Source of the DNA: Lunularia cruciata
Taxonomy: Eukaryota; Streptophyta; Marchantiopsida; Lunulariales; Lunulariaceae
Length of the DNA: 64,000 bases
NCBI GenBank assembly: GCA_948567375.1
Contig: OX419760.1
Coordinates: 17,794,001 to 17,858,000, forward strand
Direction of reading: 5' to 3'
The notes under the pieces were generated by a model, which worked only from the letters and a program-made list of their open reading frames with translations, searched no databases and was not told where the DNA came from. Made by a program: the position numbers and the translations under genes. Shown here in pieces: positions 20,890 through 55,620 of this stretch (position 1 is the first letter of the stretch; every line of letters starts with the position of its first letter).

Positions 20890-20900
20890 CCGGGGGTAAT
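20890..20900 (+). other. Polypurine tract of element A
   Basis: CCGGGGGTAAT directly before the LTR start TGTAACACTC; short but at the right place. Confidence 0.75.
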
Positions 20901-21591: not shown

Positions 21592-21757
21592 GAACATCCT
21601 TTGCAAAACGAGCTCTCTTCTTCTCTTGTGCCAAAAGCTCCAAATTAAGACCCTTGGAGTTTGAGCACTCTCCCTTCTCATACTTGCTCTCAACCACATC
21701 TATGGATGCTATCCCCTTACCTTTGTTGGGATTAGGAGCCACTTGAGTTTCACTACT

Positions 21758-22689
21758 TCACTCTTCTCCTCTATTGGCTCCCTCATAACCCCTTCCTCCA
21801 TGGTAAGTGGAATTTAGGCAATTCCTTTGGATATGGCCTCTTCCTCCACAACCAAAACAATTTCTATCATTGAAATTGTTGGCTGGTTGGCCTCCTTTAT
21901 ATGGATAGTTTCCATAACTCCTAGGCCCTCTCCCTACATTCTGATCCACCTCTCTCTTCTCCCATAGTTGCACCACATTGATCTTGAGATCCGCAAGTTG
22001 TTCTGTGATGGTTTGGAGTGGATCTTTTGGTGGAAGTGCAAGAACTGGAACTACTACTTGTGGTGCAACTCTTGTCACCAAAGTATCATAAGTTCTACTG
22101 TACTTGTAGCCTTGAGGAGGATGCACAATCTCCTTCACCACCAAATCACTCTCATCCCCTTCCAAACTCTCCTCCATACGAATTGCAATCTTGATAACTT
22201 CAACCTTGGAAGAAGGTTTTTCATATCTCACCTTGCTTCTAATTTGTGGTCTCAACCCTCCCACAAAATTCTTGGTGAGCATGGCTCCTATGCCAATCAT
22301 TGTAGTGTCCACATCATCTCCACCCTTCCTCAACACTATGCGAAATCTGGACTCTAACTTTTCCACATAGACTCTCACTTTCTCTCTATCTCCTTGTTTG
22401 AGAAAGGTAACCTCACTCATCAATCTCTCATAACTCCCATCAGGAAGAAAATTCTCAATGAGTGCTGAAGTCAAAGTCTCCCAAGACTCTTCTTCCCCAT
22501 CTCTCCTATCTCTCTTTTGGTATTCTGACTCATACCATGTAAATGCTATATCCTCAAAGAAATCTGGTAATAATGAGGCCCACTCATTCTTCCTCCTCTC
22601 ATTGTTTCCTATGCAAGCTCTCTTGAAGTCTCTCACAAAGGCCTCCACATCTTCTCCATCCTTGCCAAAGAAAACCGGAAGTTTCCCAT
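21758..22689 (-). pseudogene. gag: A2 Gag
   Basis: About 95% identical by eye to A Gag, including capsid blocks WASLLPDFFED and FVGGLRPQIR and zinc knuckle CFGCGGRGHIQRNC. The start ATG (22689) is out of frame because one G is missing in the second codon region; the open part begins at MEAFVRDFKRAC (22648). A stop at 21758 follows the knuckle, in a glycine-rich part that is open in A. The remaining 165 bp to 21592 is gag linker. Confidence 0.9.
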
Positions 22690-22922
22690 CTTAACCCCTC
22701 ACTATCTTTCTTTTCTCTCAATTTTTTTTCTCTTTTCTTTTCTCTCACTCTATTACTAATAGAGTATATACATGACTAATACCATCTGAGAATAATCCAC
22801 TCTAGGGAACACAAAAGGTTCAGGTTGCTCCAAGATTTCTATAGCAACATCAAATCCTAGAGTGCATATTAATCTAACTCTCATGGATAGTTTATCCATA
22901 AGTTGAAAGATTATCTCCATCA

Positions 22923-23396
22923 CTAATCTTGAGAACTAGCTGATGAAGGTGGTAGTATTTCTGTAGTTGTACTAAGACTCTCTCCAAGATCCTTCACCAA
23001 AGTCTCCAAAAGTGCTTTTACTCCACTACACTCATGTCCTTTTGGAAGTCTTTCCACTCCACAAACCTCACACAACTCCTTGGTCTTAGATCTTCTCCCT
23101 CCCAATCTTGGTGAAGAAGGTCCAACATGCAAACCCAAGTCAAGTAAGTCTCTCCTTTCCCTCAATCTCTTGCTCTCAAAGGTCAATGGACATGAACTTG
23201 CCTTATGTCTCTTCTCTCTACATAGAAAGCACTTAGACTCACTCTTTCCTCCAAGTGGTGTAGGTTTTTGGATCCTCTCAACACTCTCTTCAAATTCTAT
23301 TGTAAACTCTCTTTTCCTCAAATACACCCATACAATCACCTCAAACCCTTGAGGAACCTTGCATAATCTCAATTTCCACTCTTGATGACCCTCCAT
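22923..23396 (-). CDS. Pre-gag ORF0 of A2, intact, two Cys/His motifs
   Basis: 157 codons with no disruption. N-terminal beta-rich segment (FEVIVWVYLRKREFTIEFE), zinc knuckle CFLCREKRHKASSC (C56, C59, H64, C69), a basic linker, then CEVCGVERLPKGHEC (C109, C112, H121, C123), and a Ser/Thr-rich tail. Same orientation and place as in A, about 230 bp before gag. It survives whole although gag of the same copy is frameshifted. Function is unknown; nucleic-acid or protein binding through zinc is the reasonable guess. Pre-gag ORFs are known from Ogre elements. Confidence 0.75.
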   Translation of the reverse strand: MEGHQEWKLRLCKVPQGFEVIVWVYLRKREFTIEFEESVERIQKPTPLGGKSESKCFLCREKRHKASSCPLTFESKRLRERRDLLDLGLHVGPSSPRLGGRRSKTKELCEVCGVERLPKGHECSGVKALLETLVKDLGESLSTTTEILPPSSASSQD

Positions 23397-23641
23397 GTTC
23401 CCAAGATGAATCTAAACACTCAAACATGCTTTTTGTTGATCTCAAACTCCTCATGCATGAGATCTCCACTCTGCAGAATTGACCATTCCTCACAATGTCA
23501 CTAAAATCTCCCAACAAGTATGTCACAGTCCTCTGAAAATTTTCACACTTGATCACAACTCTAGGGCGTCTCTCCCTTCAAAATTTCAGATCTCTTCATT
23601 GAGCCATTTGGCCTAGACACCTTTCTATTCAGCATCCATAT

Positions 23642-23695
23642 TTCAGATTTGGTCTGAAAACCACCCCTTTCAGATTTGGTCTGAAAACCACCCCT
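23642..23695 (-). repeat. 27-bp tandem duplication at a leader deletion scar in A2
   Basis: Two perfect adjacent 27-bp units (23642-23668, 23669-23695), of which A has one. They abut the point where A2 lacks A positions 2849-3212. Confidence 0.9.
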
Positions 23696-23883
23696 CATGT
23701 GTACAAGATGTACAAAATCACCTCAAAGACATCATAATGAACTATAGGGTATACAAATGGATCTTGGTTCTCTAACATAAGTTCAGCCCTCTCTTCTCCT
23801 AATGTCCTCACCAAGTGAGCTCTCATAGCCTCCTTCTGCCTAATGTAGAATTGAACGCGAAACATTATCTTGCCTTCTAGAGA

Positions 23884-23902
23884 GGTCCTGGCAACGAAAC
23901 CA
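23884..23902 (-). other. Primer-binding site of A2
   Basis: TGGTTTCGTTGCCAGGACC on the minus strand, 4 bp inside the LTR end. Less decayed than in A. Confidence 0.65.
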
Positions 23903-23906
23903 AAAA

Positions 23907-24614
23907 TGTGAGCTGGCTTGTCTTTCACTCAAGATGAACCTCTTATGGCTATTATGCTAGCGCACCATGGACTAAGAAGGCAAGGAACCCTAACTCCATC
24001 ATACTCCTCCAAGGCTAACACTCCAAGACTCAAGACATTACTCACTAGAGAACTCAATGAGAGAGAGATAGTTGCAAATGAAAGGATGATGAGTACCTCC
24101 TCACCCCTTGTTTATATACTTGTGAAATAGTTACATACCAAAGTTACTCATTACTGTAGCAACTCAAATTACTAGACTAAAAGTCAAGTAAAGTCAAAAA
24201 GTAGAAAGGAATATCCATTCACATGGGCATATTCCCCTAAGCATGTGGTCTTATCTTGACCCAACTACTAAGTCAAGGATTCCTTCACATGGGCTATCCT
24301 TAGACTAAAGAAGAATCCAAAACAAAAAGGCTTGCGGGCCTTTTTATCCTTTGAGGAAAGAGTTCTCAACTCTTTCCTCAAAGCCAAACACCTAGGCATA
24401 ATACCAAGTCAACACACTAAAGTCCAAAATAGTGGTGCTCATCTATTCTACTTCCTCTAAAGCAAGGTCCCCTCTATCTTAGCTATGACTAACTTTAGCT
24501 AACCATGAATAATATAGAACCATCCTTTATCTCTATATAAATAATATCTCTTAAGTACTTGTAATACCAAGCTAAATATCACAATACCACACACATGCAC
24601 AAATGGGTGTTACA
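23907..24614 (-). repeat. 5' LTR of A2
   Basis: 708 bp on the minus strand from TGTAACACCC (24614) to GCTCACA (23907). It is longer than the A LTR because of an extended palindrome at 24349-24383. Confidence 0.93.
24349..24383. repeat. Perfect 16-bp inverted repeat with 3-bp loop in A2 LTR
   Basis: ctttgaggaaagagtt (24349-24364), ctc, then its exact reverse complement (24368-24383). The A LTR has only the inner half, so the outer arm was gained in A2. Confidence 0.9.
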
Positions 24615-25774
24615 GGTCAACTTTGTCAAGGCCTTGGCAATGGCACTAAATCCTCTAATATAGCGGCGATAGAAGTTCACCAACCTAAGGAATGCTCGCA
24701 CTCTGCTCACATCTGTAGGCCAAGAAATATGTGCAATAGCCTCCACCTTGGTCTGTTGAACACCAAGTCCTCTGGGGTAGATAGTGTGACCCAAATACTC
24801 AACCTGCTCGTGGAAGAACCTACACTTCCCAAGATGTAATTTGAGTCCATGAGATCTAAACCTCTCAAACACCTCCAACAACTGTCTCTCATGCTCTTCC
24901 ATAGTAGTGCTATAAACCAAAATGTCATCAATATAACACCGAGCAAAATCCAATCGAGCTAGGATCCTATCCATGACCCTCTAGAACTCAGCAGGAGTGT
25001 TCTTCAACCCAAATGGTAAGAACCTCCACTGATATAACACATCCTTGCCGTGAGGATCAATAGCCCAAAATGTTGTCTTGGACTTATCCTCCTCCCTGAT
25101 CGGCAACTGATGATATCCCGCTTGAAGATCCAAAGTACTGAAGACCTTTGCATGCCCAATTGCATCAAGAATCTCCTCCGATGTATGCATGGTATACCGA
25201 TCAGCCCTGGTCTATTGGTTGATAGGACGGTAATCTCCACACATCTGCCTATCTATATAGTTGCCATGCATATCCTTCTTGGCTGGCATCACTGTCGCTG
25301 ATGCATACTCTCCATGTGAAATCTCCACCAAACCAGCCTCAAAAAGGTCACTACTCCGGCTCTGAATCAATGTCCTCTCCATCTCACTATATCGATAAGG
25401 ATGTCGGAAAACTGTTGTGTTGCTAGTCAGCTCAATCCGTATACTAGGTCCCTTTAGAGCACCCAAATCCTTCATACTGAAGGCAAAACAACTCATGTGA
25501 CTCCTCAAGAACCTCCAAACCCTCCGTCTTTCCTCTCTAGTAAGCTTGGGTCCAAGATCTGGCTCCCAAGTATCCTCTGTAATTGTAGTAGGAGTGGAAG
25601 ACGTACTGGCTGACTGCTACACAGGGCCCTTGGGAGCAATAGTGTCATGCTCCCGACCACTAGAGGTCCCAACCTCTGTGTGAAAAACTCCCTCCACTCT
25701 GGCTGCAAGCTCCACATGTCCTCTGGCTGCATCTCATGTGGACCAAGGGTGTAATCCAAGTAGCCCACGCTCAC
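24615..25774 (-). pseudogene. pol: C1 reverse transcriptase
   Basis: A gypsy RT distinct from A, B and D: RQMCGDYRPINQ, then a stop, TRADRYTMHTSEEILDAIG, FSTLDLQAGYHQLPI, YQWRFLPFGLKNTPAEF, then a stop, RVMDRIL, and the catalytic YIDDILVYS (about 24919-24942), followed by VEYLGHTI and VRAFLRLVNFYRRYI. The YIDD box is intact. The N-terminal 90 codons (25774-25505) lie in a different frame. The frame runs into the A2 LTR after ALTKLT. It follows the methyltransferase without another domain between. Confidence 0.92.
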
Positions 25775-25899
25775 CTAGATGGACTCCAAGTAGACCACTC
25801 TCCCTAGTAGTTACTGGATGTGTCCCAAGAATACCATGTCCACTCAATCCATCACCCCTAACATGGGCCTAAATTGTCTCGATAGGCATAGGGCTCACA

Positions 25900-26920
25900 A
25901 GTGTCCGAGAGGTGATGCTTGTCAAGCGTATCCTACGCTGTTGTGCCAAGCCAAGGCTCACAATCCAAGTCAAATAGTTTACGTCCATAGCTTGACCTAA
26001 CACCTAATGCTTGGATGCCTCTAACACCGCTAGAACAATGGTAATGCCGGTGCAAAAACCCATCACCCACTCTCTCTCATCAGCGTTGGGCTCCACCAAC
26101 TGCTATAACTGTGAGTCCCAAACAAGTCCGAGTCCTCCCTCTTGAAAAGCATGAGAGCCTGGGAAACTCATGAGTGTGGGAAATGCAGCTCTAGGCTGTC
26201 GAACTAGGTTCACCACTGCCAAAGGTGACCTATCAGCCACTACCACTATTTGAGACTGACGCCTAACATCCAAGATATCAACAACAAGAATGTGGTCCAG
26301 TCGCTGAATCTCATCATAAGCACAATGTAAAACCTCTATGGGTAAGAGGTTTGTCCACCAAAGACAAAGATGATGAGCCCGTGATCCCACTCTGGCTGCA
26401 TCTAACAATACCACAGGTCCCATCCAAGAATGGACCTGATGTGTACTCACCACCACTCTAGTGTGAGAATCACCCATCAAAGAAATGTTCTCCAAAAGGT
26501 AAGCTGGAGAATAGACTGATGAACCTAGAGATATTGTAGTATCCATAACATCTCCCAAAACACACCTAAACAAGGATCCTAAAGACCCAATCCTCTACCA
26601 GCACGTGTATGTCCCTGACATGGCCATCCAAAAATCACCAAGTGAATAGGCCCATCTCTCTCTAGGTCATGCGCCCCTAGTAAGGAAATGTCTCCTGGTA
26701 GGGCCTTTTGGTAACCTCTGACTGCTGACATTGGTAATAACTCCGGATACCAATAGGCCAAGTGTGCCACATGATGTAGAGAGACTCGCCTAGCAGTCTC
26801 ATCTCTCTCTACATACAAGTACCTTTGTACTCGTATACCCGCATGTAACACCGTAGCTAGTCCAGTGCTGATCCTACCAAACAACTCCAATAGGCATATC
26901 CCCTCTACTGGATACTGCCA
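25900..26920 (-). pseudogene. C1 cytosine-5 DNA methyltransferase domain
   Basis: Would transfer methyl groups from S-adenosylmethionine to DNA cytosine. Ordered C5-methyltransferase motifs are visible: motif I LLELFGRISTGLA (26893-26855), an acidic SAM-binding block YLYVERDET, motif IV FGWPCQGHTRAGRG with the catalytic Cys codon at 26618-26620, motif VI LLENISLMGD, motif VIII-like GSRAHHLCLWWTN, motif IX-like ERE-stop-VMGF and motif X LGQAMDVNYLTW (about 25984-26001). A stop (26579-26581) follows motif IV and one frameshift lies near 26510-26560; two more stops are near the end. Motif I has Arg where Gly is usual, and C2 shares it. The domain lies between protease and RT in the element's own sense, so it is part of Pol and not a separate insertion. 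Confidence 0.9.
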
Positions 26921-27089
26921 AGCAATGAGTGTGGTATCCAGAGGTGTCAAAGCAATCACCTTTGGAGGCTCATCCTCACACTCATCTCTTGATGGTATGA
27001 AGGCTCCACTCCAAGCCTGCTGCACCAACTGATCTGCATGATGTTGCAATGCCTCCTCTAAACTCCACAATGGAACATCCAAGGTGGAT

Positions 27090-27934
27090 GGAACAATATC
27101 ACTCGTGCTCCAAAGCCGAGTGATCTCCTCTGGTACTCAAGTATCCTCTACATGGGCATTCCCTTCCAACAAGTCACCAGGCCAAGTAACTACACGACTG
27201 AAAGCTAAAACTGATGCTGCCATGGTCCTGAATTGTAGTGAGCCAAGACTGCCACTACTGAAGCGTACTAGTAGGCGACATACTCGTCCCTCACCAGATT
27301 GCCAACCAGGTCTATAAGAGGTTGTCTCCTCCCAATAGTCAATGCTAAAACCCATGGGATGTAACATTGCTCCCCTAACTAGCACATCATATGACTCAGC
27401 TATTGTCACAATAGCCTGAGCTCTCACCACCGAGCTATCAGTCAGATGACCAGGCTGAACATGGACAACAAGCTCTCCACGTGTGATGTACTGTGTCGAA
27501 CCACCACCTAAAGATGTCTAGATCTGAAATAGACACCTCTCCACATCGGTCTTCCATAACTCCAGACCGACAACTACAACCTTCCCCAACATAAGGGGTT
27601 GCGCACCAGAGTCTAACAAGACTCTTTGTGGTGTATAGACCTTCCCTGAAGGTCCCACCAAACAAAAAATCCCCCTCTGGTTATCCAATAAGACAACACC
27701 AGGTGTTAACCGCGCTCTCTCAAAGGCCGGTCTAGCTGGCAACTCCTCCAGTCTAGCTGCTAGTGCCTGCCATAAACCACTTGTCGCTGAACGGATCCCA
27801 TGCTCCTCAACCAAGTCAGCTTCACTACCAACCACCTCTGCTCTAGTAGTAGGAACTGCACCATCCCTACTCTCACACAACATGGCAGCCAACCGGAATA
27901 TGGGTTGGGTCAACTCCCAATGTAAACATATCAT
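27090..27934 (-). pseudogene. C1 aspartic protease and linker to methyltransferase
   Basis: Retropepsin-like: VLLDSGAQPLMLGK (active site D-S-G) after a Val/Leu-rich strand block, then VERCLFQI, stop, SLGGGSTQYI and ESYDVLVRGAMLHPMGFSIDYW. The last of these is the plant protease end motif with MLHPMG in place of ILGxPWL. A linker (RPGWQSGEGRVCRLLVRFS) leads in the same frame towards the methyltransferase. C2 has a diverged copy at 49522-49854 with LLDFGAQPCML. Confidence 0.8.
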
Positions 27935-27959
27935 TGGCCGAAAACAAAGGACGCCGCAT

Positions 27960-29858
27960 AATTAGTTGAGCCGCCCCCAACATCATGCTAGACTCAGTCT
28001 CTATAGTAACAGGTGGCTGACTAGCAGGTAGTCCATCATGTGCTCCATCACCACCTACCATAACTACACTGGGACGTCTAGGAACCATGGATGTTATCTG
28101 TAATGCCTCATATAGTATGAAAGACTGGGGAAGTCTAACCTATCTCCCAACCTCTCCTCTCTGTGGGTCTAACCCCACTGATGCTCCTCTAGGCTCTGGA
28201 GCACTTACTGCACTCCTAGTCACTGCTGCAGATGCATCCACCTGTGCTGCTCCGCACATGAAGTCCAAAGCATCTCTATCACCAACATATGAGGTGGAAG
28301 CCTCAGCACCCGAATCAGATCTCCTTTGAGCAATAGCCATACTAGCCAATCTCTGCTCCAACTGCTCAATCCAAGTAGCCATAGCTGTGTCAGAAGTAAG
28401 GGCAAGTACTGCACCCCTACTAGGTGTAGATACTCTACCACCACCTCTACCACCTCGTCCTCCATGAATTGGAGCTCTTCTACTACCAGCCATAGCAGCC
28501 CTACCACTCCGTAACTCCGAGTGTAGGTCAAAACACTAGTCACTAGTGTGACCAAATCTGTGGCAATGCTCACACTGCTTCTGTGCTGGCTGTGATGCAC
28601 CAGAGGTATCAGGTCCGCTGCCCTAAGTACACTCTCTCCTATGGTGAGGTCCACCACAAGTCCAACAAGCAACACCACCACTCACTGGCTGCTGCTTACC
28701 TAAAAATGAGGGTAAGGGTCTAACTCCACTAGGCCCTCCACTCGCTCCATAGGATTTGGGCTGTCCACCCTGTCCTCAAAAACCAACTGGGTGTGGTGCA
28801 CTCTGCTGCACTCTAGAAGAAGTCACAGCCGTGGATGAGGTCTCCCTACCAAATCTAGATGTCACCACTCTCTCCTCCACCATATTGAGCTTGATACGCT
28901 CAGCCAAACCAAAGACTACTGCCAAAGTGGACAAAGTAGCCTGCAACAACGTAGCATCACAAACTCTACGTCACAACTCCTTGTCCAATATCCCATACCA
29001 AAACTGGACTGCTTGGGCCTTAATAACTCCCTAAGTGAAACAGATCAGCCACCTCATGCGGGTGTATGCCTCACGTAGGCTCTCTCCAGCCTTCCGTTGG
29101 AACTCTTGCAAGCTCCTCAGCTTGTCAATCCGCACTCCCTAGTAGTTCTGCCTCAAATATAGGAAGAACTCCACCATGGGGTTAAACCCCGATACCACAC
29201 CACCTCCTACAACGGTACCTCCACTCGTATTAGCACTATCTCCAGCTAGTGCACCTCCACTAGCTCCACTAACACTACTCGAGCTAGAACTCGTAGGTAC
29301 AGCCGATCTACTCCTGGCCACCAAACCTGAAGTGATAGAGACATAGTTCGGAGACCAATACTATCTCCATAACTCGATCTCCTCCAAATGAGCTCTCCTG
29401 AACTCATGGTAGTCATCTATCGGTGGACCCTCCAAATGCTGAAACAACCCCTTCCATGCCATGAAGGGTGTGAACACAGTCGGGTTCCGTATCTGCTGCA
29501 GATCACACCAACTATCAAACTCCTGGATGAAGTCATCCAACTCAATGGTACCCATTGTACTAGAGTAACGCCTAGGGCCTTTGGAGGCCCCATAAATCTT
29601 GTCCATGTCCCACAACAACAGTGCGGACACACCAAGTGCACTCTCAACTAAATTAGCTCTTGTGTCGAACTCCAACTTAGAGTCAATCTCCTCCCTCATT
29701 AGGACCTGAGATACAAGCTGATACCGAGCACCACTCCAAGTAAACCCACTGCGTACTGTAGGGCTAACTCCTCTAGAATCTCCAAAGAACTCTGTCGTGA
29801 CAAAGTAACCACAACAACAAACCCGAGCCACCAACTGCAACCGCAAGTGCCCCACCAA
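27960..29858 (-). pseudogene. gag: C1 Gag
   Basis: Minus-strand frame with several in-frame stops. Capsid-like part: ELDDFIQEFDSWCD, FTPFMAWKGLFQHLEGPP, then a Ser/Gly-rich spacer, REAYTRMRWLICFT and VQFWYGILDKELRRRVCDA. Two zinc knuckles follow, CWTCGGPHHRREC and CEHCHRFGHTSD-stop-C. After them comes a Gly/Arg-rich patch (GGRGGRGGGRV) of RNA-binding type and a Gln/Glu-rich helix (MATWIEQLEQRLASMAI). The frame changes near 27900 to that of protease. Confidence 0.85.
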
Positions 29859-30194
29859 GTGCCAACACCACCATGTGCCAACACCAACTAAGGACCACCC
29901 ACTAATGTAACTCTAACCGAGATAACTACACTAGGGGAAAGGGCAACCTGTAACCTGCCATCATTACACGCACTCTCACGGTCTGCTAGTCATCACTTCT
30001 TGCCTCACCAAAGAGAAACAAAGGTAGTTTGACTGGTCATCACTCCAACCTCACCACCGAGAGCACACCAGAGCACCAACACTCAAAAGTCAGGGCACCT
30101 CACACAAACGTGGTGCACAAATAGGAAGCAGAGAATGGAGGGGGTCCAATCACAAGAAATCTAAATGAAAATCCTCCATCTCATAACACAACAA

Positions 30195-30213
30195 GGGACT
30201 GACTCTGCCACCA
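30195..30213 (-). other. Possible primer-binding site of C1
   Basis: TGGTGGCAGAGTCAGTCCC on the minus strand, 9 bp inside the LTR. C2 has the same site with C-to-T type changes. I cannot match it to a particular tRNA. About 330 bp of leader with no recognised feature separates it from gag. Confidence 0.45.
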
Positions 30214-30222
30214 TTTGGCATT

Positions 30223-31567
30223 TGACATAAGAGAAGTTCGTATCTAAGTCCTAAGCTACCAGGATCACCAAGAATGGGATCAAACTGCCTCTCCTAGCCA
30301 AAGCTACATGTGTATAGATAACAATGGCACAATCACTATGACAATAAGTGAGGGTGGACCAGTTGGCTAAGGCACCAATCTAGGAACAAGAGATCTAGGG
30401 GTCAAACCCTATTGCGCACAATCTAGCAAGAAAGGCAGATTTTGCCAACCAATGACCAAGATCTACTCTAAACTAGCTAGCCTCACGCTAGCAAGCTGGC
30501 TTGCTGGCCCTTCATAGCCTTTTTCATAGCCCATAGCCCTATGCCTCAAAGCCTCTAAATGCCTAAATGAGGCCTTTCTTGTTGCCACTTTGAACCTCCT
30601 CCAAAATTGGTGAAACTTCTCCAAATCTGCAAAAGTCCTCCAAACTAGCAAAACTCCTCCAAATTTGGCCAAAATCTGATGTAAATCCCAACTAAAATCT
30701 GATATAAAATCTGACATAAACCCTAAAGTTGGTTGTCCGCCAAATCCCCCGCTAACTTCTACTCGAGCCAAATCGACAACACGGGTTTCTCCAAATCACA
30801 AATTCATGAGAAGAGCTTCCCAACTCCACTTCAATTTGACTTTCTGAGCCCAACTCATAGCAAATTGGTCCTGCCTTCACCTCCTGAGCCCAAAATCACA
30901 ACCACTACTCAAAATTTGCTCCTTCTTTGCTCAAAATTTGGCCAGTGCTTCCGCACACCGTCCGCCTAACTGCCAAATCTGCATCAATCGATTGAGCTTT
31001 TACACACTAGGGAAACACTGAACTTGAATCGAGCTACCAACGATCCATCGAGCTTGGAGATACCACCAACACTCAAAGTTCCTGCACCCAATTTCCCCTT
31101 GACTTGACTTCTCTGATGTAATCAGATTGCTTACCACTCTCAACTCAACTCAACTCAGATTAGTACTTGATCTGTCACTCTATAAACTGCCAACAATTGG
31201 GCACTGATTACAGTCAAGCCACACCTACTCAAGCATAGAGAATCCAGGTGACGCTCACCGGCCTCTATCCACCATAGCAAAGAACTCAAAGGCTCAACAT
31301 CAGAGAAGTGAGCTCTCTAGAGCTCACTTCAAAACTATACCCCCTGGACTCGAGCTAGCTCTGAAACCCTAACGGTCCCGCTGACGGCACACTCGTCGGT
31401 GCAAACGGTGCAAAGTGATAGTGGGCCCTACTGTGAAGTCAGTACCTCGAACACAAAATCTAACCGTCGGAAAGTAGTCTTTGAGAAACGGCTGAAATAA
31501 CTCTAACTACTATCACTGGAACTCCAGTGTCCGAGCATCTAGATGCGGCACTACAAATGGCGTGACA
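30223..31567 (-). repeat. 5' LTR of C1
   Basis: 1,345 bp on the minus strand from TGTCACGCC (31567) to ...CTTATGTCA (30223). It aligns with 52399-53667 of C2, including the AATTTGG/TTTGGC-rich middle and the conserved ACTCTCAACTC segment. The C1 copy is less decayed. Confidence 0.85.
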
Positions 31568-31604
31568 AATCTCATTGGAACTAATCATGCTCCTAGTAGG
31601 CGGC

Positions 31605-36245: not shown

Positions 36246-36545
36246 TCAAGAACATCTAGGACCTAACCAATATCCTTGAGGAACCACCATGAGGGAAGGA
36301 GTCAAATATGCCATATGCCATCTTCTCAAATAACTATCATACACTAATATAGTAGCAACTCTACCATAAGAGCCACATAACATACAACGCAAGCTTGCGC
36401 GTACAAGTGTCAAGCTTGGGTCCATAATACCATCAGTTTTTGGGAGGTGGCATGGCACATAATTGTGTGCATGATCCTTCCAAACAACACCACCATGTCC
36501 TTCCAACACAAATATGCTAGAAGGCAAAACCTCACATACTCTCAA
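36246..36545 (-). pseudogene. C2 Pol C-terminus: decayed PHD-finger-like module
   Basis: Open 99-codon stretch downstream of integrase. Its end reads LRCMLCGSYGRVATILVYDSY then LRRWHMAYLTPSLMVVPQG then YWLGPRC. PHD fingers read C-X2-C...C-X2-C-X4-H-X2-C...(hydrophobic)P-x-G-x-W-x-C-P-x-C. Here the first pair, the His and the last Cys are kept. Three expected Cys are Tyr (TGT-to-TAT type) and one is Gly. Restoring the pattern needs only single-base changes per residue, so I read this as a dead PHD finger. PHD fingers bind histone H3 tails; it occupies the place of a chromodomain. C1 and C3 lack this part in the window, so only one copy supports it. Confidence 0.65.
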
Positions 36546-36929
36546 GATAGTACGGCATGTAGTAATATCAAGTGTTGTTGGTATTGTCTACTATAGATAT
36601 ACATAATGACATGGATGAATCAATGAATTAAGAATCTATAATCTCTTCCTTGAATGGTAGCATTAGCGTAAGGTATCCCTATGTTGAGCAATTGCTAAGT
36701 TCTTAAAGGCCATCAGCATCACTCTCCAAAAGATCTATGCTCATTGAGAACATGCGCTCATCCATACATCTAGATCATCCAAGTCCAAAACTACAATAGC
36801 ATCTCAACAAATGGTTGTAGGTAAATCTGGATCTTGTCCATAGAGTAGAAAGTAACAAGAGAAGGATGGTAAGGAGCAATGTTGGATGAATTGATAACTC
36901 ATGGCAAACCAAGGTAACTAGAGATCTCA

Positions 36930-37560
36930 ATCTCCCAAGTGTCCTATCTGCAAACCATACTTCTGCAATACTCTCTTCATCATTTGAACCATTCTCTTTG
37001 TTAAGCCATTTGCCTTAGGGTGATCTTGGGAGGTAGTATGATGATCAATCAAAGCCTTGCCACACAAGACCTAAAAATCCTCTAAGAACGCTATATCATG
37101 ATCAGTCAAAACCTCAACTAGTGCACCAAAATGACTAAGAACCCAATCCAAGAACAAGTAAGTTGTCCTTTTGCTAGACTTGTCAAGAAGTGCCACCAAA
37201 TCAATCCACTTGGAGAAGTGTTCCACCATCACCAAAACATACCAATGATGTTTCACAATCATCAGTAAAGGCCTAGTAGAGTCCAAAATCCAACTTTAAT
37301 CCAATCCCATAATAGGTTATGGGTGTAATTGTGGCATAGGAGCATTGAATGATGCTCTAACTTGGTCATAAACCCCACATCTGGCAATAAATTATTGTAC
37401 ATTGGTCTGCATACTATACCACCAATAATGAATTTGGAGTAAGCTATATGTACATTTTACTCCAAAATGTTCTAGCTCCTTATGAGCATGATGGACCAAC
37501 TGTGGTCTCTAAGATGTAAATGGTACTACTCACACTCTACCATCCTCTCATATACAAAGA
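36930..37560 (-). pseudogene. pol: C2 integrase
   Basis: Pieces in order from 37500 down: zinc domain HKELEHFGVKCTYS...CGVYDQVR (second Cys of the CC pair changed to Tyr), core WILDSTRPL...WYVLVMVEHFSKWIDLVALLDKS, EVLTDHDIAFLEDF (second Asp) and HPKANGLTKRMVQMMKRVL. In the last block the catalytic Glu of the usual GLxER is Lys (GAG-to-AAG). Inactive. About 380 bp of broken sequence separates it from the PHD-like module. Confidence 0.85.
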
Positions 37561-38176
37561 AGGTATCTACCTTCCAATCTGAACCGTCTAGCTCACTAAA
37601 GAACACAATCTCTCTCTCTCTGCATTGATGTTGTGCCACCCACAACATCAATGTAAAGATAATGTAAAGATAATCCATCATTAAGGCATCATCATGAAAG
37701 TCTCATTGAACTATACCACTATCTCCACTCTCTAGATCTATGACCTCAATAACTACTATATGCACTGAGAGAGATACCACCTAAGCCTCAAAAAATATGC
37801 AAAGAAAGGTAGATGTATTCCAACTTGGCACCGTCTCTTCATCTATCTCACCATGCCAACATGCTCTGATCTAATCTTGCTTGTTGGGATATGGGTTTCT
37901 ACTCAACCTATTTGCATCATGATTCAGCACTCCAAGTCTCTAAATAGACCATGAAATCATACTCCTATAAAATCATAGCCCATCATGCAAGCTTCTCTAA
38001 AAGCTTGCTTGGACTCCATCAACTACTTCAATGGCTGATGATCACTGATGAGAGTAAAGTGGTTACCAAATAGGTAACATAACAAATGTACTTTTGCCCA
38101 TAATGCTACCAAGCACTCTTTCTCATATGAACTATATTTTGCTTTTGTTGAATTGTTGGAGCAACTAGCATAGGTT
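37560..38176 (-). pseudogene. pol: C2 RNase H
   Basis: Near 38023-38176: STKAKYSSYEKECLVALWAKVHLLCYLFGNHFTLISDHQPLK, typical gypsy RNase H (YS..EKECLA ... F.L..DHQPL). The downstream part to 37560 is a stop-ridden tether to integrase with a readable MDYLYINVVGGTT-type fragment. It is cut at 38177 by an A-family solo LTR. Confidence 0.82.
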
Positions 38177-38866: not shown

Positions 38867-39207
38867 ATGCCACTACAAACTCCTTCTCCTCATCATCATG
38901 TTGGTGAGCATTGTTCCAAGCCCTAACATACTCCAATAATGTGAACCTAAAATGGTCATCTTGATTGATCTCCTCAAAATAAGAGTAGATGTCAACCTCT
39001 CCTTGAGCTCTAGAAAATCTCTCTCCTACTCATCTCCCCAATGCCACTCCTATGTAAGCTTGGCCAACATTGTCAAGGCCTTGGCAATGGCACTAAATCC
39101 CCAAACATAATGGCAATAGAAGTTCACAAACCCAAGGAATACTTAAACTTTGCTCACATTTGTAGGTCCAGGAATATGTGCAATACCCTCCACCTTGGCT
39201 GCTTAAC
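38867..39207 (-). pseudogene. pol: C2 RNase H N-terminus and RT connection
   Basis: Joins C-family pol between two LTR insertions. It aligns with 54520-54850 of C3 and 24625-24760 of C1 (conserved gtcaaggccttggcaatggcactaaatc). The frame is destroyed. Confidence 0.75.
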
Positions 39208-41070
39208 TGTGACAACTTGGCAAATATCACTTTTATGGTAATCAGGTAAGTAAAGTTTGCTCCCATAGAGATACTAATCAAAATTGGTCAAATACAAAGT
39301 CAAATGTCACAATGTAGTACTTCTTGGATTCTTCTTTAATCTCTTAGGTAGCAACTACACCCAGAAGAGAGTAACAAGCACTGACTTAAAGTCTTGTCAC
39401 AAATACACATACCAAATCACAACATAACAAATTTTGTCCAAACAAATCTTGATTGTGATGATCCGGATTCTCCTAAAGATGGCACTTCACTGCAAAATGA
39501 CTTCGCTTCAGAATTGTGTTCCACCCCTCCACTGAAGGCACAACTTCCTCAATAAAAATTGCTTCACATCAACTTTGAGTTGCACTCAAAAATGCAAAAT
39601 ACTACCAACACTACAATTCCTCTCAAATCTATCAAGGCATTGCTTTGATTGCAGTTCACTTAGGATCACACACATAGAATGAAGATCAAGGCTACGGAAT
39701 CAAACATCCAACAAGCACACTGACTTGCAATTTGAATTTCACTAAACACTCACAAATATAAACATAGAGTTGATACTTGGAATCAAGCTCAAGCGACAAC
39801 GTTGCTTCACAGCACTTTGCTTTATCTATTCTCAGAAATTATGAGCATTGAACAACATAAGACTGCGAATGCCACCTTTAAATAGTGAAGCAAATGACAA
39901 TTATCTTCCTAATGTACCGCTTCCTAATAGCTCTTCCTACCTACAGATCCGAAATGACAATGCACCTCTTCATATCTACTTCTTCCTATCTCAAAACTAT
40001 TACTACTCCAATCCGATGTCTACTTCTCCCTCTGCTTCCTATCCCAAAATAACTTCACTTACTACTCTGTCCTTGAGTTTCACAACTACTAATTCCTCTA
40101 CTAATTCTACAACTTCTTTGCTCTGATCTACAATCCTTGTCATAGTTAATCCTTCTAAATCTCTATCTCCCGACCCACTCTCTCTTAAGTGTCAAATGTC
40201 AAATCCAAAGACACCTACACTCTTATATCTCTTACTTCGGGTCTAACTACTATCAATTCCTGAACTAATTCTACTATGTCCTCATCAATAATTGTAATTG
40301 AAAGCATGGGTACATTATCTACGCCTTCAATTTGCAACCTATTTTCCCCTAATCACTCATGTAACTGACCCAAAGACACTTACTATCTTATCTTGCACTT
40401 CGGGTTCATTCACTACTACTATTTCTCTTCTAATTCTATCATATCTTCAATCAAAACTAAAATTGAAGTCATGGGTATTCTAAATATCTTCTTTCATTAC
40501 TCTAACTTCCTTTAATACCTCAGGTAAGATTCCAAAAGTTGGACTACCTTGGGTTGAATCATATTTGTCTTGAGGCAAAGTCTTTAGACCCAAAGTCATG
40601 TAAACCCAAAGTCCAAAGTCGTATAGACCCCGAAGACACCAAACTACTTTGTACATTTACTCCCAAATCTTCAAATGCTTGTAATTTCTTCTACAGACCT
40701 TCAAACTCTGTGATTTTGGTGGTAATGGAAATCCCTAAACAAGATGCTTCCAATAATATATAGCACGCATGATTTGGACATGTTTTCATTGAGATAAAGC
40801 CCCCGCAAGAATCTTAACCTACAACTTCCATTCCTCCTTTGGGTCTATCTTCCTTCAGCGTCTGATCCGAGTTTTTCCTCCTCTGACACAAAGTAAGCTT
40901 CTTCGGGTTTGATCCAATCTAATTCCTTCTTCCTCCAACACAAAGCTGACTTCTTTGGGTTGAATCAAAATACAAAATTCTCATCGTTTATTCTCCATTT
41001 GGGTTCAATTCGGTTTCAATAAGCATTTCTTCTTTAAAACTTGTCCAAAATGAAAAATGTGGGTACCACA
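39208..41070 (-). mobile_element. Solo LTR of family B inside C2 (B3)
   Basis: 1,863 bp, TGTGACAACTTGG...GGGTACCACA, with perfect target duplication ttaac (39203-39207, 41071-41075). It is a more diverged sub-family: the first 650 bp match B LTRs well, the coiled-coil region is mostly absent, and the U3 is different. The ORF-L1/L2 frames cannot be followed. Confidence 0.92.
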
Positions 41071-41476
41071 TTAACACCAAGTCCTCCAAGGTAGATAGTG
41101 TGACCCAAATACTCAACCTACTTGTGGAAGAATCTACAATTTCCAAGATGTAATTTGAGTCCATGAGATCTAAATCTCTCAAACACCTCCAATAAATATC
41201 TCTCATGTTCCTCCATAATAGTGTTATAGACCAAAATATCATCAATATAGCACTAAGCAAAATCCAATCCAATTATGATCTTGTCCATGACCCTCTAGAA
41301 CTTGATAGGAGTGTTCTTTAACCTAAATGGTAAGAACCTCCATTGATATAATATATCCTTACCATGAGGATCAATAGTCCAAAATGTTATCTTGGACTTA
41401 TCCTCTTCCTTGATTGGCAATTAATGATATCTTGCTCAAAGATCCAAATTATTAAAGACCTTTGCATGCCTAATTG
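41071..41476 (-). pseudogene. pol: C2 reverse transcriptase fragment
   Basis: Aligns with 24760-25160 of C1, including the region of the IDDI catalytic box (near 41235) and FFWTIDPHGKD-type sequence, with many stops. Ends at microhomology taattgga with an A-family LTR fragment. Confidence 0.85.
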
Positions 41477-48660: not shown

Positions 48661-49300
48661 GAGAATCACCCATCAAAGGGACATTATCCAAAATGTAATC
48701 CAAAATGGATTGATGAACTTGGAGATGTTGTAATATACATAATATTTCCCAAAACACACCAAAATGTGGATCCTAAAGACCCAAACCTTGGCCAACATAT
48801 ATATGTCCATAACATGGCCATCCAAAAATCACCAAATGAATGGGACCGTGTCTCTCTAAATTGTGTGCTCATAACAAGGAAATATTTGATGGTATGATCT
48901 TCTGGTAATCCTTGACTGCTAACATTAGTAATAACTCAAGATATCAATAGGCCAAGTGTGTCACATGATGTAGAGAGACTTGCCTAGCAATCTCATCTCT
49001 GTCCACATACAAGTACCTATGTACATATATACCCACATGTATTACCACAATTATTCTAGTGCTAATCCTACCAAATAACTCCAATAAACATAGTCTCTCT
49101 ATTGGATACTCCAAGCAATGAGTGTGGTGTCCTAAGAGTTTAAGGTAATCAACTCTGAAGGCTCATCCTCACACTAGTCTTTGGTGGCACAAAGGCTCAC
49201 TCCAAGCCTGTTGTATTAGTTGATCCACATGTTGTTACAATGTCTCTTATGAACTCCACAATGGAACATCCAAGTTGGATAGAACAATCCCACTCATACT
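48661..49300 (-). pseudogene. C2 methyltransferase, N-terminal half
   Basis: Readable motifs: I, LLELFGRISTR (near 49060-49090), with the same Arg as C1; IV, FGWPCYGH (near 48815-48835), with catalytic Cys kept but the following Gln changed to Tyr; VI, LDNVPLMGDS (at 48661-48700), Glu changed to Asp. Motifs VIII-X are lost to the deletion. Confirms that the domain belongs to the C family and is not private to C1. Confidence 0.85.
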
Positions 49301-49499
49301 CCAAATCAAAGAGATATCCTTTGGTACAAGAGTATCCTTTGCATAGATGTTCCGCTCCAATAAGTCACCAAGCCAAGTAACAAACCATTGAAAGCTAAAA
49401 TTGATGTTGCCATGGTCTTGGATTGTAGTGATCCAAGAATGCCACTACTGAAGCATTTTGGTAGGCAACATACCAGTCCCTCACCTAATTGCTAACCTA

Positions 49500-50080
49500 A
49501 TCTATAGGATGTTATCTCCTCCTAATAGTCAATACTAAAACCCATGGTGTATAATATTGTTTTCCCAACTAACACATCATATGACTCAACTATTGTCATA
49601 GTGGCTTGAGCTCTCACCATATAGCTATTAGTTGGATGACTAGGTTGAATTTGGACATTGAGCTCTCCACATGTGATATCTTGTGTAGAACCACCTCTTA
49701 GAGATGTATAGATATGAAATGGACACCTCTCCACATTGGTCAACCGTAACTCTAGACCAACAATTATAGCCTTTCTTAACATACAAGGTTGTGCACCAAA
49801 GTCTAGTAAGACCGTTGTGGTGTATAGACCTTCCCTAAAGGTCCCACTAAACAAAAACTCCCCCTTTGGTTATCCAATAAGACAAATCTATGTGTAAATT
49901 GTGCTTGCTCAAAGGCTGGTCTAGTTAGTAACTCCTCCAATCTAGCCATTGTTGCTTGCTATAAACCACTAGTCATTGAGTGGATCCCATGCTCCTCAAC
50001 CAAGTCAGCTCCACATCAACCACCTCTACTTTAGAAGTAAGAACCACATCATCCTTACTTTCACAAAATGTGGCAGCCAC
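49500..50080 (-). pseudogene. C2 protease
   Basis: Open over 49522-49854: TFREGLYTTTVLLDFGAQPCMLRK (D-F-G for D-S-G), then ESYDVLVGKTILYTMGFSIDY. Aligns with C1 protease with about two-thirds identity by eye. Confidence 0.8.
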
Positions 50081-50099
50081 TTGAAACACTAGAGCCGGG

Positions 50100-51960
50100 T
50101 CAACTCCCAATATAAACATGTCACCGGTTGAGAACAAAGGACAATGCATAATCAATTGAGCAGGCCCCAACATTGAGCTAGACTCAAATAGTGTAGTAGC
50201 AAGTGGCTGACAAACATGTAGTCAATCATGATTCCCATCACCACCTACCACACTTGCACTAGGATTTCTAGGAGCCATGGATGTCATATGTTGTGCCTCA
50301 AAGAGTGTAAAAGATTGGGAAAGTCTAACCTGTCTACCAACCTTTCCTCTCTATAGGTCCAACTCCATTGATGCTCCTCTAGGCTTTGGAGCATGTACTG
50401 CACTCCTTGTCACTATGGAAAATGCATCTACTTTTATTGCTCTACACATGAAGTCCAAGATGTCTCTATCACCAATACATGAGGTGGAAGCCTCAACACC
50501 TCAACACAATTTGATCTCCACTGAGTGATGGCCATGCTAGCCAATAATCTCTACTCCAACTACTCAATTCAAGTAGCAAATGGCAGTTTGGAATTAAGAG
50601 TAGGTATGGCACCCCTACCAAGTGTAGATCCACCACCTCTACTACCTCATCCTCCATGACCTAGAGCTCCTCTACCACTTGTCATAGTAGCCCTACTGAC
50701 TAGGTGTAGGTCAAAGCATAGGTCACTAGTGTGACCAAATTTGTGGTAATGCTCACATTGTCTTTATGTTAGCTATGATGAACCAAAGGTATGAAGTCCA
50801 CTACCTTGAGTGCACTCTCTCATGTGGTGAAGTCCACCATAAGTCCAACAAGCAACACCACCACTCATTGGCTACTCTTAACCCAAAAATTAAAGTAAGG
50901 GTCTAGCTACACTAGGCCCTCCACTTGCTCCATAGGATTTGGGCTATCCACCTTGTCCTTGGAAATCAACATGGCATGTTGCACTCTTGCACTTTGGAAG
51001 AAGTAACATTTGTGGATGAGGTCTCCCTACCAAATCCAAATGTCACCACTCTCTCCTCCACTAAGAGAGTTGAGGTCATGTTGAGGTCAATATGCTTAGC
51101 TAAACCAAAGACCATTGCCAAAGTAGGCAAAGTAGCCTATAACAACATAGCATCACAGACTCTACATTGCAACTCTTTGTCTAGTATCCCATACCAAAAC
51201 TAGACTATTTGGGCCTTAACAACTCCTTGAGTAAAATTGATCAGCCATATCATGCAAGTGTATGCCTTGCATAGGCTCTCTCTAGCCTTCCATTGGAACT
51301 CCTACAAGCTTGTTAGTCCGCACTCCTTGGTAGTTCTGCCTCAAACACTAGAAGAACCCACCATGGAGTTAAACCCAAGTACTACACCACCTCTTGTAGT
51401 GGTACTTCCACTCATAGTAGCACCATCTCTAAGAGATCCACCAATGCTACTAGAGCTAGAACTCATGAGTATTGCCGATCTACCCTTAGAAATCAAGCTT
51501 GAAGTGATGGAGACATATTTTGGAGACCAATACTATCTCCATAGCTCAATCTCCTCCAAGTAAGCTCTCCTAAACTCATGATATTCATCCATCAACAAAT
51601 CCTTCAAGTGCTAAAACAACTCTTCTATGCCATGAAGGGTGTAAACAAAGTCCAGTTCTGCATTTGCTACAAATCACATCAACTATCAAAATCGTAGATA
51701 AATTCATCCAACTCAATGATACCCATCATAATAGAGTAATGCTTAGGGCATTTGGAGGCTCCACAAATCTTGTCAATGTCTCACAACAATTGTGTAGACA
51801 CCCCAAGTGCACTCTCAACTAAATCAACTCTTGTGTCAAACTCAAACTGAGAGTCAATCTCCTCCCTCATTGGGACATGAGAAATAGGTTAATATTGAAC
51901 ACCACTCCAAGTCAACCCATTATGTATTATAGTGCTATCTCTTTTGGAATCCCCAAAGAA
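50100..51960 (-). pseudogene. gag: C2 Gag
   Basis: Follows C1 Gag along its length (Ser-rich spacer near 51380-51490, zinc-knuckle region near 50700-50850, capsid region near 51560-51900) but with many more stops; no long frame is left. Codon-level changes are mostly C-to-T and G-to-A relative to C1. Confidence 0.75.
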
Positions 51961-53667: not shown

Positions 53668-54520
53668 ACCATGATAGGTAATGTGTGTAATTGTGGTATA
53701 TGAGCATTAATTGATGCTCTAATTCAATCATAAACCGCACATATGGCTACAAACTACTATACATTGGTCTTCATACCATGCCACCAATAATGACTATGGA
53801 ATAAGTTATATATTTTCTCTACTCCAAAATGTCCTAGCTTCTTATGGCATGATGTACTTATTGTGGTGTTTGAGATGAAAGTGAAACTACTTGCACTCTA
53901 TCATCCTTCCATGCACAAAGAAGATGTCTACCTTTGAATCTAAATTTCTTGGCTTGTTGAAGGATACAATCTATCTTCTTAACACCAATTGTGCAATGCA
54001 CAACACTAGTGCAAAGATAGTCAATCACTAGAAAATCATCATGAATGTCTTGTTGACTAGTATTAATATCTCCACCGTTTGGATTTGAGAATTCAACAAG
54101 TCCTAATGTTTGTATTGAGAAACATATTACCAATGCCTTAGAAAATATACATAAGAAGGCAAGTGCATGCCAACTTGGCCCTATCTCCTCAATTGTCTCA
54201 CCATGCCAATGTGCTCTAGTGTGATCTTATTGACTGGTGCATGGGTTTTTACTCAACCCATCTACATCATGGTTCACCACTCCAAGTTTATGAATAATTG
54301 TGAAATCATACTCTTGTAAAATCAAAACCCATCATACAAGTTTCCCTAAAAGCTTGTTTGACTCCATCAACCATTTCAATGGTTATTAATCAATGATGAG
54401 AGTGAAGGGGTTACCAAATAGGTAACATAAAAAATGTAATACTATCCACACTACTACCAAGCACTCTCCCTTTTATGGACTATATTTCATCTATTTTGAA
54501 TTGTTGAATGACTTCCATAA
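53668..54520 (-). pseudogene. pol: C3 integrase zinc domain and RNase H
   Basis: Aligns with 37303-38176 of C2 plus the start of 38867: LEQAKKFRFKGRHLLCAWKDDRVQV (53858-54000) and CFSIQTLGL are readable islands. No full motif remains. Confidence 0.65.
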
Positions 54521-54699
54521 TCCACCACAAACTCCTTCCCCTCATTATCCTATAGGTTATTGCTCCAAGCCCCAATGTACTCCAATAAGTATGAACTTGG
54601 AATACGCATCCTTTGATTGGTCTCTTAAGAATAGGAGTGTCAATCTCTCCTTGTGTTCTTTAAAGCTCTCTCTTGCTCATCTAACCCAATATCACTCTT

Positions 54700-55620
54700 G
54701 TGTAAGTTTGGTTGACTTTGTCAAGGCCTTGGCATTTGCACTAAATCCTCTAACATATTGGTGATAAAATTTTGCCAACCTAAGGAATTCTTGCACTCTA
54801 CTTACATCTTAAAGCCAAGGAATAGGTGCAATAGACTCTACCTTGGTTTGCTAAACACCAAGTCCACCATAGTAGATAGTGTGGCCCAAATACTCAACTT
54901 GCTCTTGGAAAACTCTACACTTCCCAAGATGAGTCCATGAGATTTCAATCTCTCAAAACACCTCTAATAAATATCTTACATGCTCCTTCACAATAGCATT
55001 ATAGACCAAAATGTCATCAATATAGCAATGAGTAAAGTCTAATCTAGCTAAGATCTTGTTCATGACTCTTTGGAACTAGGTAGGAGCATTTTTTAACCCA
55101 ATTGTAAGAAAATCCACTAATCTAATCCATCCTCACCATGAGGATCAATAGCCCAAAATGTTATCTTGGACTATTCCTTGTCCTTGATTGGCAATTGATT
55201 ATATCTTGCTTGAAAATCCAAAGTATTGAAGAACTTTTTTGTTGCATGCTCAATTGTATCAAAGATCTCCTATGTATGTAGGCATAACATACCAATCAAA
55301 TCTAATTTGTTGGTTGATTAGATTGTAATCTCCACATATCCATCTATATGTGTAGTTGCCATGTATATCCTTCTTGGTTGACATCATTGTGGTTGAAATG
55401 TATTCTCCATGTGAGATCTCCATCAACCAACCTCACAAAGGTCTCTACTCCAACTCTAAATCAAGGTGCTCTCCATATCACTATATTTATAGGGATATCA
55501 AAAAAACTAGTGTATCATAATCAGCTCAATCCAATACCAAGTCCTTTTAGAGCACCCAAATCTTTCATATTGAAGGCATCACAACTCATATAGATCCTTA
55601 AGAACCTCCAAACTCTCCAT
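54700..55620 (-). pseudogene. pol: C3 reverse transcriptase
   Basis: Aligns with 24640-25520 of C1, including the catalytic-box region (atgtcatcaatatag near 55010-55025, reading YIDDI) and the IDPHGED-like block near 55140. Stops and indels throughout. Confidence 0.8.

What the first reader, a model, noticed from the sequence alone, without database searches (positions are those of the whole stretch)
25900..26920. Gypsy retrotransposon family with a built-in cytosine-5 DNA methyltransferase
Seen: in C1 the motifs I, IV (PCQ with catalytic Cys), VI, VIII, IX and X of C5-methyltransferases occur in order, in element sense, between protease and RT. C2 holds the N-terminal half and C3 the C-terminal part at the same place, so three independent copies show it is a family trait. 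Known: as I recall, methyltransferase-bearing retrotransposons have been described in a few eukaryotes, including a charophyte alga and dinoflagellates. Inferred: the element may have methylated its own DNA or that of relatives, for example to limit host damage or hide from other defences.
Basis: partly seen in the sequence, partly recalled or inferred. Interest (0 to 1): 0.92.

Follow-up and report, generated by a model that had tools for sequence, protein, structure and literature searches.

The report
Plant retrotransposons carrying a DNA methyltransferase
A family of jumping genes in this plant genome carries its own DNA-marking enzyme, relatives of which turn up in liverworts, peat mosses and a charophyte alga, so genomic parasites of land plants can carry the tool that hosts use to silence them.

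Summary
Confirmed. Window 25926-26950 (minus strand) encodes a C5-cytosine methyltransferase (MTase) between protease and reverse transcriptase of a decayed Ty3/gypsy element; C2 and C3 hold parts at the same place. The C1 pieces fail Pfam, but genome copies pass PF00145. In the window's own assembly 123 of 123 scored places pass (2161 candidates; 117 family-like by profile range, 4 of 8 read confirmed). L006 runs from protease end through MTase in one 623-aa frame. Relatives lie in Calypogeia, Marchantia and Sphagnum; Klebsormidium has the same MTase-RT order. Of 82 relatives, 43 carry another retroelement domain: 33 fit a slot upstream of RT, 10, without organism names, a slot between RNase H and integrase. 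A decayed copy in the window and a Marchantia gene model have a PHD finger after integrase. The enzyme is DNMT3-like by profile and fold; catalytic Cys stands in 33 of 33 chosen rows with a residue there. Sampled element enzymes form one clade; its source, host DNMT3 or bacterial type, is open. The kind was known from Klebsormidium and dinoflagellates; ten searches found no land-plant report. Self-methylation is inferred.

The parts
28281..29606 (-). C1 gag-like region with two zinc-knuckle-like motifs near 28600-28750 (one broken by a stop)
   Evidence: tblastn with Marchantia P0168 N-terminal part: 49.9% over 451 aa, E 2e-111; motifs read
26966..27901 (-). C1 protease region (DSGAQPL motif near 27610) and linker
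   Evidence: tblastn with P0146: 50.5% over 319 aa, E 3e-82
25926..26950 (-). C1 C5-methyltransferase domain, DNMT3-like, broken by stops and a frame change
   Evidence: tblastn with Calypogeia P0145: 71.6% and 60.3% over two pieces; profile E 3e-56 and 3e-59 for the two main pieces
24618..25307 (-). C1 reverse transcriptase, cut off by a repeat at 23907-24614
   Evidence: tblastn with Marchantia P0153: 68.7% over 230 aa, E 6e-104; PF00078 in one of two pieces scanned
50987..51777 (-). C2 gag-like region
   Evidence: tblastn with P0168: 43.6% and 54.5% in two pieces
49202..50152 (-). C2 protease region
   Evidence: tblastn with P0146 in four pieces, 30-51%
48662..49327 (-). C2 linker and N-terminal half of the methyltransferase; similarity to C1 ends near 48661
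   Evidence: 58.9% over 185 aa to the C1 piece; 53.6% to P0145
56623..56868 (-). C3 C-terminal part of the methyltransferase
   Evidence: 47.6% over 82 aa to P0145, E 4e-18
54149..55402 (-). C3 reverse transcriptase and RNase H
   Evidence: 42.2% over 429 aa to P0153, E 1e-85
38900..41474 (-). C4, a further copy: reverse transcriptase in two pieces (41474-41064 and 39199-38900) with other repeats between
   Evidence: 59% and 53% to P0153; the first piece is 86% identical to C1 DNA 24759-25178
37790..38175 (-). C4 RNase H pieces
   Evidence: tblastn with P0153: 61%, 70% and 40% in three pieces
36249..37562 (-). C4 integrase with a decayed C-terminal PHD finger (about 36400-36249)
   Evidence: 57.3% over 274 aa to the integrase-PHD end of Marchantia P0175, E 4e-89; read; no Pfam scan of this stretch was made

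Best explanation
C1-C4 are decayed copies of one Ty3/gypsy family whose polyprotein ran gag - protease - DNMT3-like cytosine methyltransferase - reverse transcriptase - RNase H - integrase - PHD finger. Shown: the order in pieces of several copies, presence in more than one genome copy and species, conserved catalytic residues, and many genome places in long open frames. Inferred: the methyltransferase acts within or after release from pol, stays with the reverse-transcription complex, and adds 5-methylcytosine to the new double-stranded cDNA before or at integration, while the PHD finger, a histone-tail reader by family, steers the integrase. A copy that arrives already methylated would not look like foreign naked DNA and would be quiet from the start, which limits harm to the host. 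I put the identity and family trait at about 0.95, catalysis on DNA at about 0.75, and cDNA self-methylation as the selected function at about 0.4.
For: Domain and order in the window. Genome: 123 of 123 scored places pass the PF00145 cut-off (2161 first-look candidates). By profile range I of them family-like; of these 70 have an open frame of 300 aa or more, 38 of 500 or more, 7 of 1000 or more; notes one stop inside the match in 8, 3 and 1 of these. Only 8 of the 123 were read; 4 of those 8 (L005-L008) are family members by tblastn. L006 is one 623-aa open frame from the protease end through the MTase; L007 keeps one frame from gag end to RT with four stops. DNMT3 type: PDB profile search gives DNMT3A 1.6e-8, a DNMT2-type tRNA enzyme 0.003, 4onj 0.011 (tobacco DRM, as I recall), M.HaeIII 0.041; all 50 listed fold matches are DNMT3 entries (model mean pLDDT 54.8, above 70 only at about 41-140 and 161-180). 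Catalysis: Cys in 33 of 33 rows with a residue there, ENV Glu 34 of 34, motif VIII Arg 33 of 34, in 34 rows that I chose of 209 fetched proteins; in a wider look 101 of 103 proteins with the motif frame, of 144, have Cys. Pairwise dN/dS of the MTase 0.34 and 0.42 (L007 against L008 and L006), gag-protease 0.69 and 0.51. Dinoflagellate DIRS-type element enzymes methylate CG in yeast (PMC5890265 section 10).
Against: No expression, methylation or activity data here. The Klebsormidium enzyme gave no activity in yeast, called inconclusive by the authors, and the K. nitens protein found here (P0201) lacks the catalytic motif IV stretch in its gene model and scores 17.3 bits, below the Pfam cut-off. 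Two relatives, P0108 and P0092, have Tyr for the catalytic Cys (my reading; both were left out of the 34 rows). dN/dS rests on few decayed copies: C1 pieces 0.23-0.69, L005 pieces 0.26-1.29, linker 1.45 and 0.70, RT 0.57 and 1.62 on 9 and 3 synonymous changes; one row (L006 against the C1 RT piece) is meaningless because the pieces do not overlap. Methylated cDNA could equally harm the element by silencing it. Model residues 208-306, about where target recognition lies, are below pLDDT 50. LTRs and a primer-binding site were not established. PHD is seen in the window only in C4, where no MTase part was found, so the full order is put together from different copies and from Marchantia.
Confidence: 0.6

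Rival explanations
1. The methyltransferase acts on host chromatin or host genes, or on rival elements, rather than on the element's own cDNA, so that the element reshapes the host methylome.
For: The authors of PMC5890265 speculate that genome-wide CG methylation in Symbiodinium may be a host response to element DNMT activity (section 11). A PHD finger at the end of integrase would bring the polyprotein to histone tails.
Against: K. nitens, which has such elements, has a land-plant-like methylome (section 9). A pol domain is normally packed into particles (general knowledge).
Confidence: 0.2
2. The domain methylates RNA or primer tRNA, or serves as a structural or nucleic-acid-binding part of pol, with little DNA methylation.
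For: PMC5890265 raises RNA methylation for the LINE class (section 11); DNMT2 is a related tRNA enzyme.
Against: Profile and fold are DNMT3-like rather than DNMT2-like, and catalytic residues are kept in the 34 rows examined.
Confidence: 0.15
3. The domain was taken from a bacterial- or phage-type C5-methyltransferase rather than from a host DNMT3.
For: With the broad family profile five phage enzymes score 74.6-82.7 bits, host DNMT3 67.7 and host DRM 34.0; with the narrower profile 55.7-65.1, 43.7 and 22.5.
Against: The five were picked from the 10 listed of 202 phage records, while the host DNMT3 was put together from two reading frames and may be incomplete. In the PDB, DNMT3 beats the bacterial enzyme listed. 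The tree leaves host DNMT3, DRM and phage enzymes together outside the element clade, which settles nothing about the source.
Confidence: 0.4
4. Chance insertion of a host methyltransferase gene fragment into one nested retroelement; not a family trait.
For: C1-C4 lie in nested, decayed retroelement debris.
Against: The same order recurs in genome copies and in other species.
Confidence: 0.01

Closest known systems
KnitGypsy-Dnmt3 of Klebsormidium nitens (de Mendoza et al. 2018, PMC5890265)
   Same: DNMT3-type domain within the pol polyprotein of a gypsy element; K. nitens protein KFL_000540020 (P0201) has the MTase directly before the start of RT, as here, and groups with the element enzymes in both trees that hold it
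   Different: P0201 is only 38% identical to the own-genome copy over 50% of the query, and its gene model lacks motif IV. Its repeats are described as DIRS-like (Fig. 4 legend), not checked here. The host here is a different plant, with named relatives in liverworts and Sphagnum. A PHD finger in K. nitens was not looked for. That P0201 is a published KnitGypsy-Dnmt3 copy is my inference.
SymbioDIRS-Dnmt3 of dinoflagellates (PMC5890265)
   Same: Retroelement with a DNMT3-type domain in pol; activity on CG shown in yeast
   Different: DIRS order, not gypsy; independent acquisition according to the authors; its sequence was not compared here
Host DNMT3 and DRM of the same genome (L001, L002)
   Same: C5-methyltransferases with matching motifs; DNMT3 (L001) is the best-scoring host locus of those read
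   Different: Far apart in sequence; DRM is circularly rearranged; both lie outside the element clade
Chromodomain gypsy elements (chromoviruses), recalled
   Same: A chromatin-reading module at the end of integrase
   Different: Here the module is a PHD finger, together with a DNA methyltransferase

Membership tests
Ty3/gypsy LTR retrotransposon | Order gag - PR - RT - RNase H - INT on one strand | tested here: met
   C1 gag-PR-MTase-RT and C4 RT-RH-INT-PHD; P0153 MTase-RT-RH by Pfam with a protease match before it. No single window copy has the whole order.
Ty3/gypsy LTR retrotransposon | Long terminal repeats and primer-binding site | tested here: inconclusive
   No direct repeats of 40 bases or more in 20000-34000; no match to the four primer-site words tried
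C5-cytosine DNA methyltransferase (PF00145) | Profile match above the curated cut-off | tested here: met
   Met by genome copies, by 6 of 9 relatives and 17 of 20; not met by the four C1 pieces nor by P0201 (17.3 bits)
C5-cytosine DNA methyltransferase (PF00145) | Catalytic Cys and the ENV and RxR motifs | tested here: met
   33 of 33, 34 of 34 and 33 of 34 of the chosen rows with a residue there; 101 of 103 with the motif frame for Cys. P0201 lacks the motif IV stretch.
DNMT3 family | Closer to DNMT3 than to other C5-methyltransferase classes | tested here: inconclusive
   Met against PDB sequences and folds; selected phage enzymes score higher than the host DNMT3
KnitGypsy-Dnmt3 type | DNMT3-type domain inside gypsy pol | tested here: met
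   Groups with P0201 apart from the host and phage enzymes, and same MTase-RT order
KnitGypsy-Dnmt3 type | Purifying selection on the DNMT (Ka/Ks below 0.2 in K. nitens) | tested here: inconclusive
   Pairwise dN/dS 0.34 and 0.42 among decayed copies
KnitGypsy-Dnmt3 type | DNA methylation activity | not testable with these tools
   No assay possible

The most novel reading that the evidence does not exclude
One old clade of gypsy-like elements of green plants and of relatives without a name pairs a DNA-methylation writer (DNMT3-like) with a chromatin reader (PHD finger). The writer was captured once and has sat in two different slots of pol, before RT in land plants and Klebsormidium, and between RNase H and integrase in elements of unknown hosts. 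Tens of places in this plant genome still have long open frames, so land-plant elements may deposit the host's own silencing mark as part of their life cycle.
Probability: 0.5. Interest if true: 0.75.

Novelty: new variant of a known kind. Interest (0 to 1): 0.64.

Why it matters
[quoted passage not shown] The Marchantia, Calypogeia and Sphagnum gene models found here show them in bryophyte genomes already sequenced. This makes a long-standing question testable in organisms with good genetics: does an element gain by methylating itself? The PHD finger and the second pol slot were not met for such elements in the ten searches made. The element enzymes are also a set of natural candidate de novo methyltransferases of unknown sequence preference.

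Tried and rejected
Pfam on the four C1 pieces: no methyltransferase hit, one irrelevant hit. NCBIfam: weak Dcm matches below cut-off in 3 of 5 proteins. PDB search with the single C1 piece: nothing. Viral contigs: no pattern match. Prokaryote genome contigs: 16 pattern matches, none a relative. Both scans used patterns from one relative (P0058) only, so they are weak evidence that the family is not prokaryotic or viral. One relative (P0156) sits under the label of a bacterial MAG on a 2410-base contig, probably a misbinned piece. Rfam (gathering threshold) and tRNA scans of the window: nothing. Primer-site words: nothing. A chance reading of the motifs was rejected by the reversed-window control. 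Host: not identified. The hit of highest identity to the first piece is Calypogeia fissa P0011 (77% over 66% of the query), but the own copy branches outside the Calypogeia, Marchantia and Sphagnum rows (93/91; only 80/50), so I say land plant, probably a bryophyte (inference). The root of the element clade is unstable: one search puts Klebsormidium with the land-plant slot, with the RNase H-integrase slot, so I draw no history from it. The search with alignment A3 scored only the 8000 candidates sharing most words and listed 120 of 612 hits; the third search also scored 8000.

Full report
What is there. The window is full of nested retroelement pieces. It lies in an assembly of 565.8 Mb in 74 contigs, which holds two DNMT3-like genes and a rearranged DRM among the eight places read (L001, L004, L002; names from my reading of motifs). 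C2 is 77% identical to C1 over 48661-53668 and holds gag, protease and the first half of the methyltransferase. C3 holds the last part of the methyltransferase, RT and RNase H. I add C4 (36249-41474): RT, RNase H, integrase and a decayed PHD finger; its RT piece is 86% identical to that of C1.

Is it more than chance? Yes. The N-terminal C1 piece finds 55 proteins at E 0.01 or better, best 7.1e-60. A profile from 27 relatives finds three of four C1 pieces and pieces of C2 and C3, and nothing better than E 1.6 in the reversed window. Genome copies do reach it: L006 34.9, L007 37.6 and L008 36.1 bits against a cut-off of 22.

Is it a family trait? A PF00145 search of the whole assembly scored 123 of 2161 first-look candidates; all 123 pass the cut-off. 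By profile range I of them family-like, but only eight were read (L001-L008). Of these L005-L008 are family members by tblastn, at 68-72% to relative P0058; L001, L002 and L004 look like host genes; L003 was not identified. The open frames reported for the 117 places reach 1428 aa: 70 are 300 or longer, 38 are 500 or longer, 7 are 1000 or longer; in 8, 3 and 1 of these one search counts one stop inside the match. So many copies do not look like debris. L006 carries protease end, linker, methyltransferase and pre-RT linker in one 623-aa frame.

Relatives. The profile search returned 612 proteins, 120 listed, with names from Calypogeia fissa, Marchantia polymorpha, Sphagnum troendelagicum and S. 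tenellum. The third search, with a longer query, returned 82, among them Klebsormidium nitens KFL_000540020 (38% over half of the query, E 3.6e-29) and Sphagnum jensenii. I sorted all 82 by local matches (E 1e-4, 30 columns or more) to natural reference pieces. 39 show the methyltransferase alone. 33 fit the slot upstream of RT: 18 PR-MT, 5 GAG-PR-MT, 6 MT-RT, 2 GAG-MT, 1 PR-MT-RT, and 1 Marchantia gene model PR-MT-INT-PHD, in which RT is missing. Pfam was run on 20 of the 82: 17 of 20 pass PF00145; P0201 and P0176 score below the cut-off and P0175 not at all. Examples: P0153 (Marchantia Mp_2g26090: DNA_methylase, RVT_1, RNase H), P0178 (DNA_methylase, RVT_1, RNase H), P0202 (RVT_1, RNase H, DNA_methylase) and P0186 (DNA_methylase, Integrase_H2C2, rve, PHD). 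The K. nitens gene model lacks the motif IV stretch.

What kind of enzyme. Against solved structures the family profile hits DNMT3A first (1.6e-8), with DNMT3B and DNMT3C close behind, well before DNMT2-type enzymes, 4onj (DRM, as I recall) and M.HaeIII. The predicted model of relative P0058 is of low overall confidence (mean pLDDT 54.8, pTM 0.59; above 70 only at about 41-140 and 161-180), yet all 50 listed fold matches are DNMT3 entries. In 34 rows that I chose from both slots, Cys stands in 33 of 33 with a residue there, the ENV Glu in 34 of 34 and the motif VIII Arg in 33 of 34. Over the first 144 proteins 101 of 103 with the motif frame have Cys; P0108 and P0092 have Tyr. A tree of 16 element enzymes with the host DNMT3, host DRM and five phage enzymes separates the element rows from the rest with full support. 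Against a simple host-DNMT3 origin, the five phage enzymes score 74.6-82.7 bits with the broad profile and the host DNMT3 67.7; that sample was chosen for similarity, and the host gene was put together from two frames. I leave the source open.

Selection and age. Pairwise dN/dS of the methyltransferase is 0.34 (L007-L008, 323 codons) and 0.42 (L007-L006, 326), lower than gag-protease (0.69, 0.51). Pieces of C1 give 0.23 to 0.69 and pieces of L005 0.26 to 1.29. RT values rest on 9 and 3 synonymous changes and give 0.57 and 1.62; the linker gives 1.45 and 0.70. Neutral decay after insertion pushes these toward 1, so this is a hint of constraint, not a proof. Synonymous distances of C1 to L006 and L007 are 0.15-0.31 in the methyltransferase pieces but only 0.035 (L007) in the RT piece, so the age of C1 is unsure.

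How it most likely works. Shown: the domain belongs to the polyprotein, is kept in several checked copies and in other species, and mostly keeps its catalytic residues. Inferred: it methylates the element's own cDNA near integration, and the PHD finger at the integrase end guides or anchors integration. cDNA methylation is the hypothesis of de Mendoza et al. for their DIRS elements (PMC5890265; abstract and sections 9, 10, 11 read). They showed CG methylation by dinoflagellate element enzymes in yeast and an inconclusive negative for the Klebsormidium enzyme.

What is known and what is new. Methyltransferase-bearing retroelements are known from dinoflagellates and Klebsormidium (PMC5890265). 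[quoted passage not shown] A 2019 paper says that they are absent from land plants such as tracheophytes (PMC6338049, passages). Ten searches of the open-access library gave me no report of them in liverworts or mosses; I saw listings and opened only the papers named here, and subscription papers and preprints are not held. Passages of PMC8616336, PMC13182070, PMC9033089 and PMC10508981 were looked at without finding one. So the kind is known. The land-plant members, the PHD finger next to integrase and the second position in pol are, to my reading, new. I call it a new variant of a known kind.

Limits. The genome tools gave one useful answer, so there is no count of copies without the methyltransferase, no LTR dating and no full copy table. 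The trees disagree about where the element clade is rooted.

Noticed in passing
window 23907-24614, 20901-21591, 38177-38867, 41476-41991: A repeat of about 690 bases (one copy shorter), 86-95% identical between copies, interrupts C1 and C4 and recurs in both orientations; probably the terminal repeat of a younger family.
   Followed up: partly
window 33053-35959 and 42239-45058: A 2.9-kb pair in opposite orientation (76%) with RT-like pieces, near shorter inverted repeats (32642-33051 and 35547-35959); possibly another retroelement.
   Followed up: no
L001 and L004 (own genome C7 and C1): Two DNMT3-like host genes, besides a rearranged DRM gene (L002).
   Followed up: partly
proteins P0186, P0189, P0199, P0200: Retroelement proteins without organism name, with methyltransferase, integrase and PHD finger; perhaps from algae (guess).
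   Followed up: partly
protein P0156: A family member is filed under a bacterial MAG (Candidatus Obscuribacterales) on a 2410-base contig; probably a misbinned piece.
   Followed up: no
L003 (own genome C8:50013591-50013866): PF00145 match at 40.5 bits (97-aa open frame) that did not match the element family (E 0.95); perhaps an exon of another host methyltransferase.
   Followed up: no
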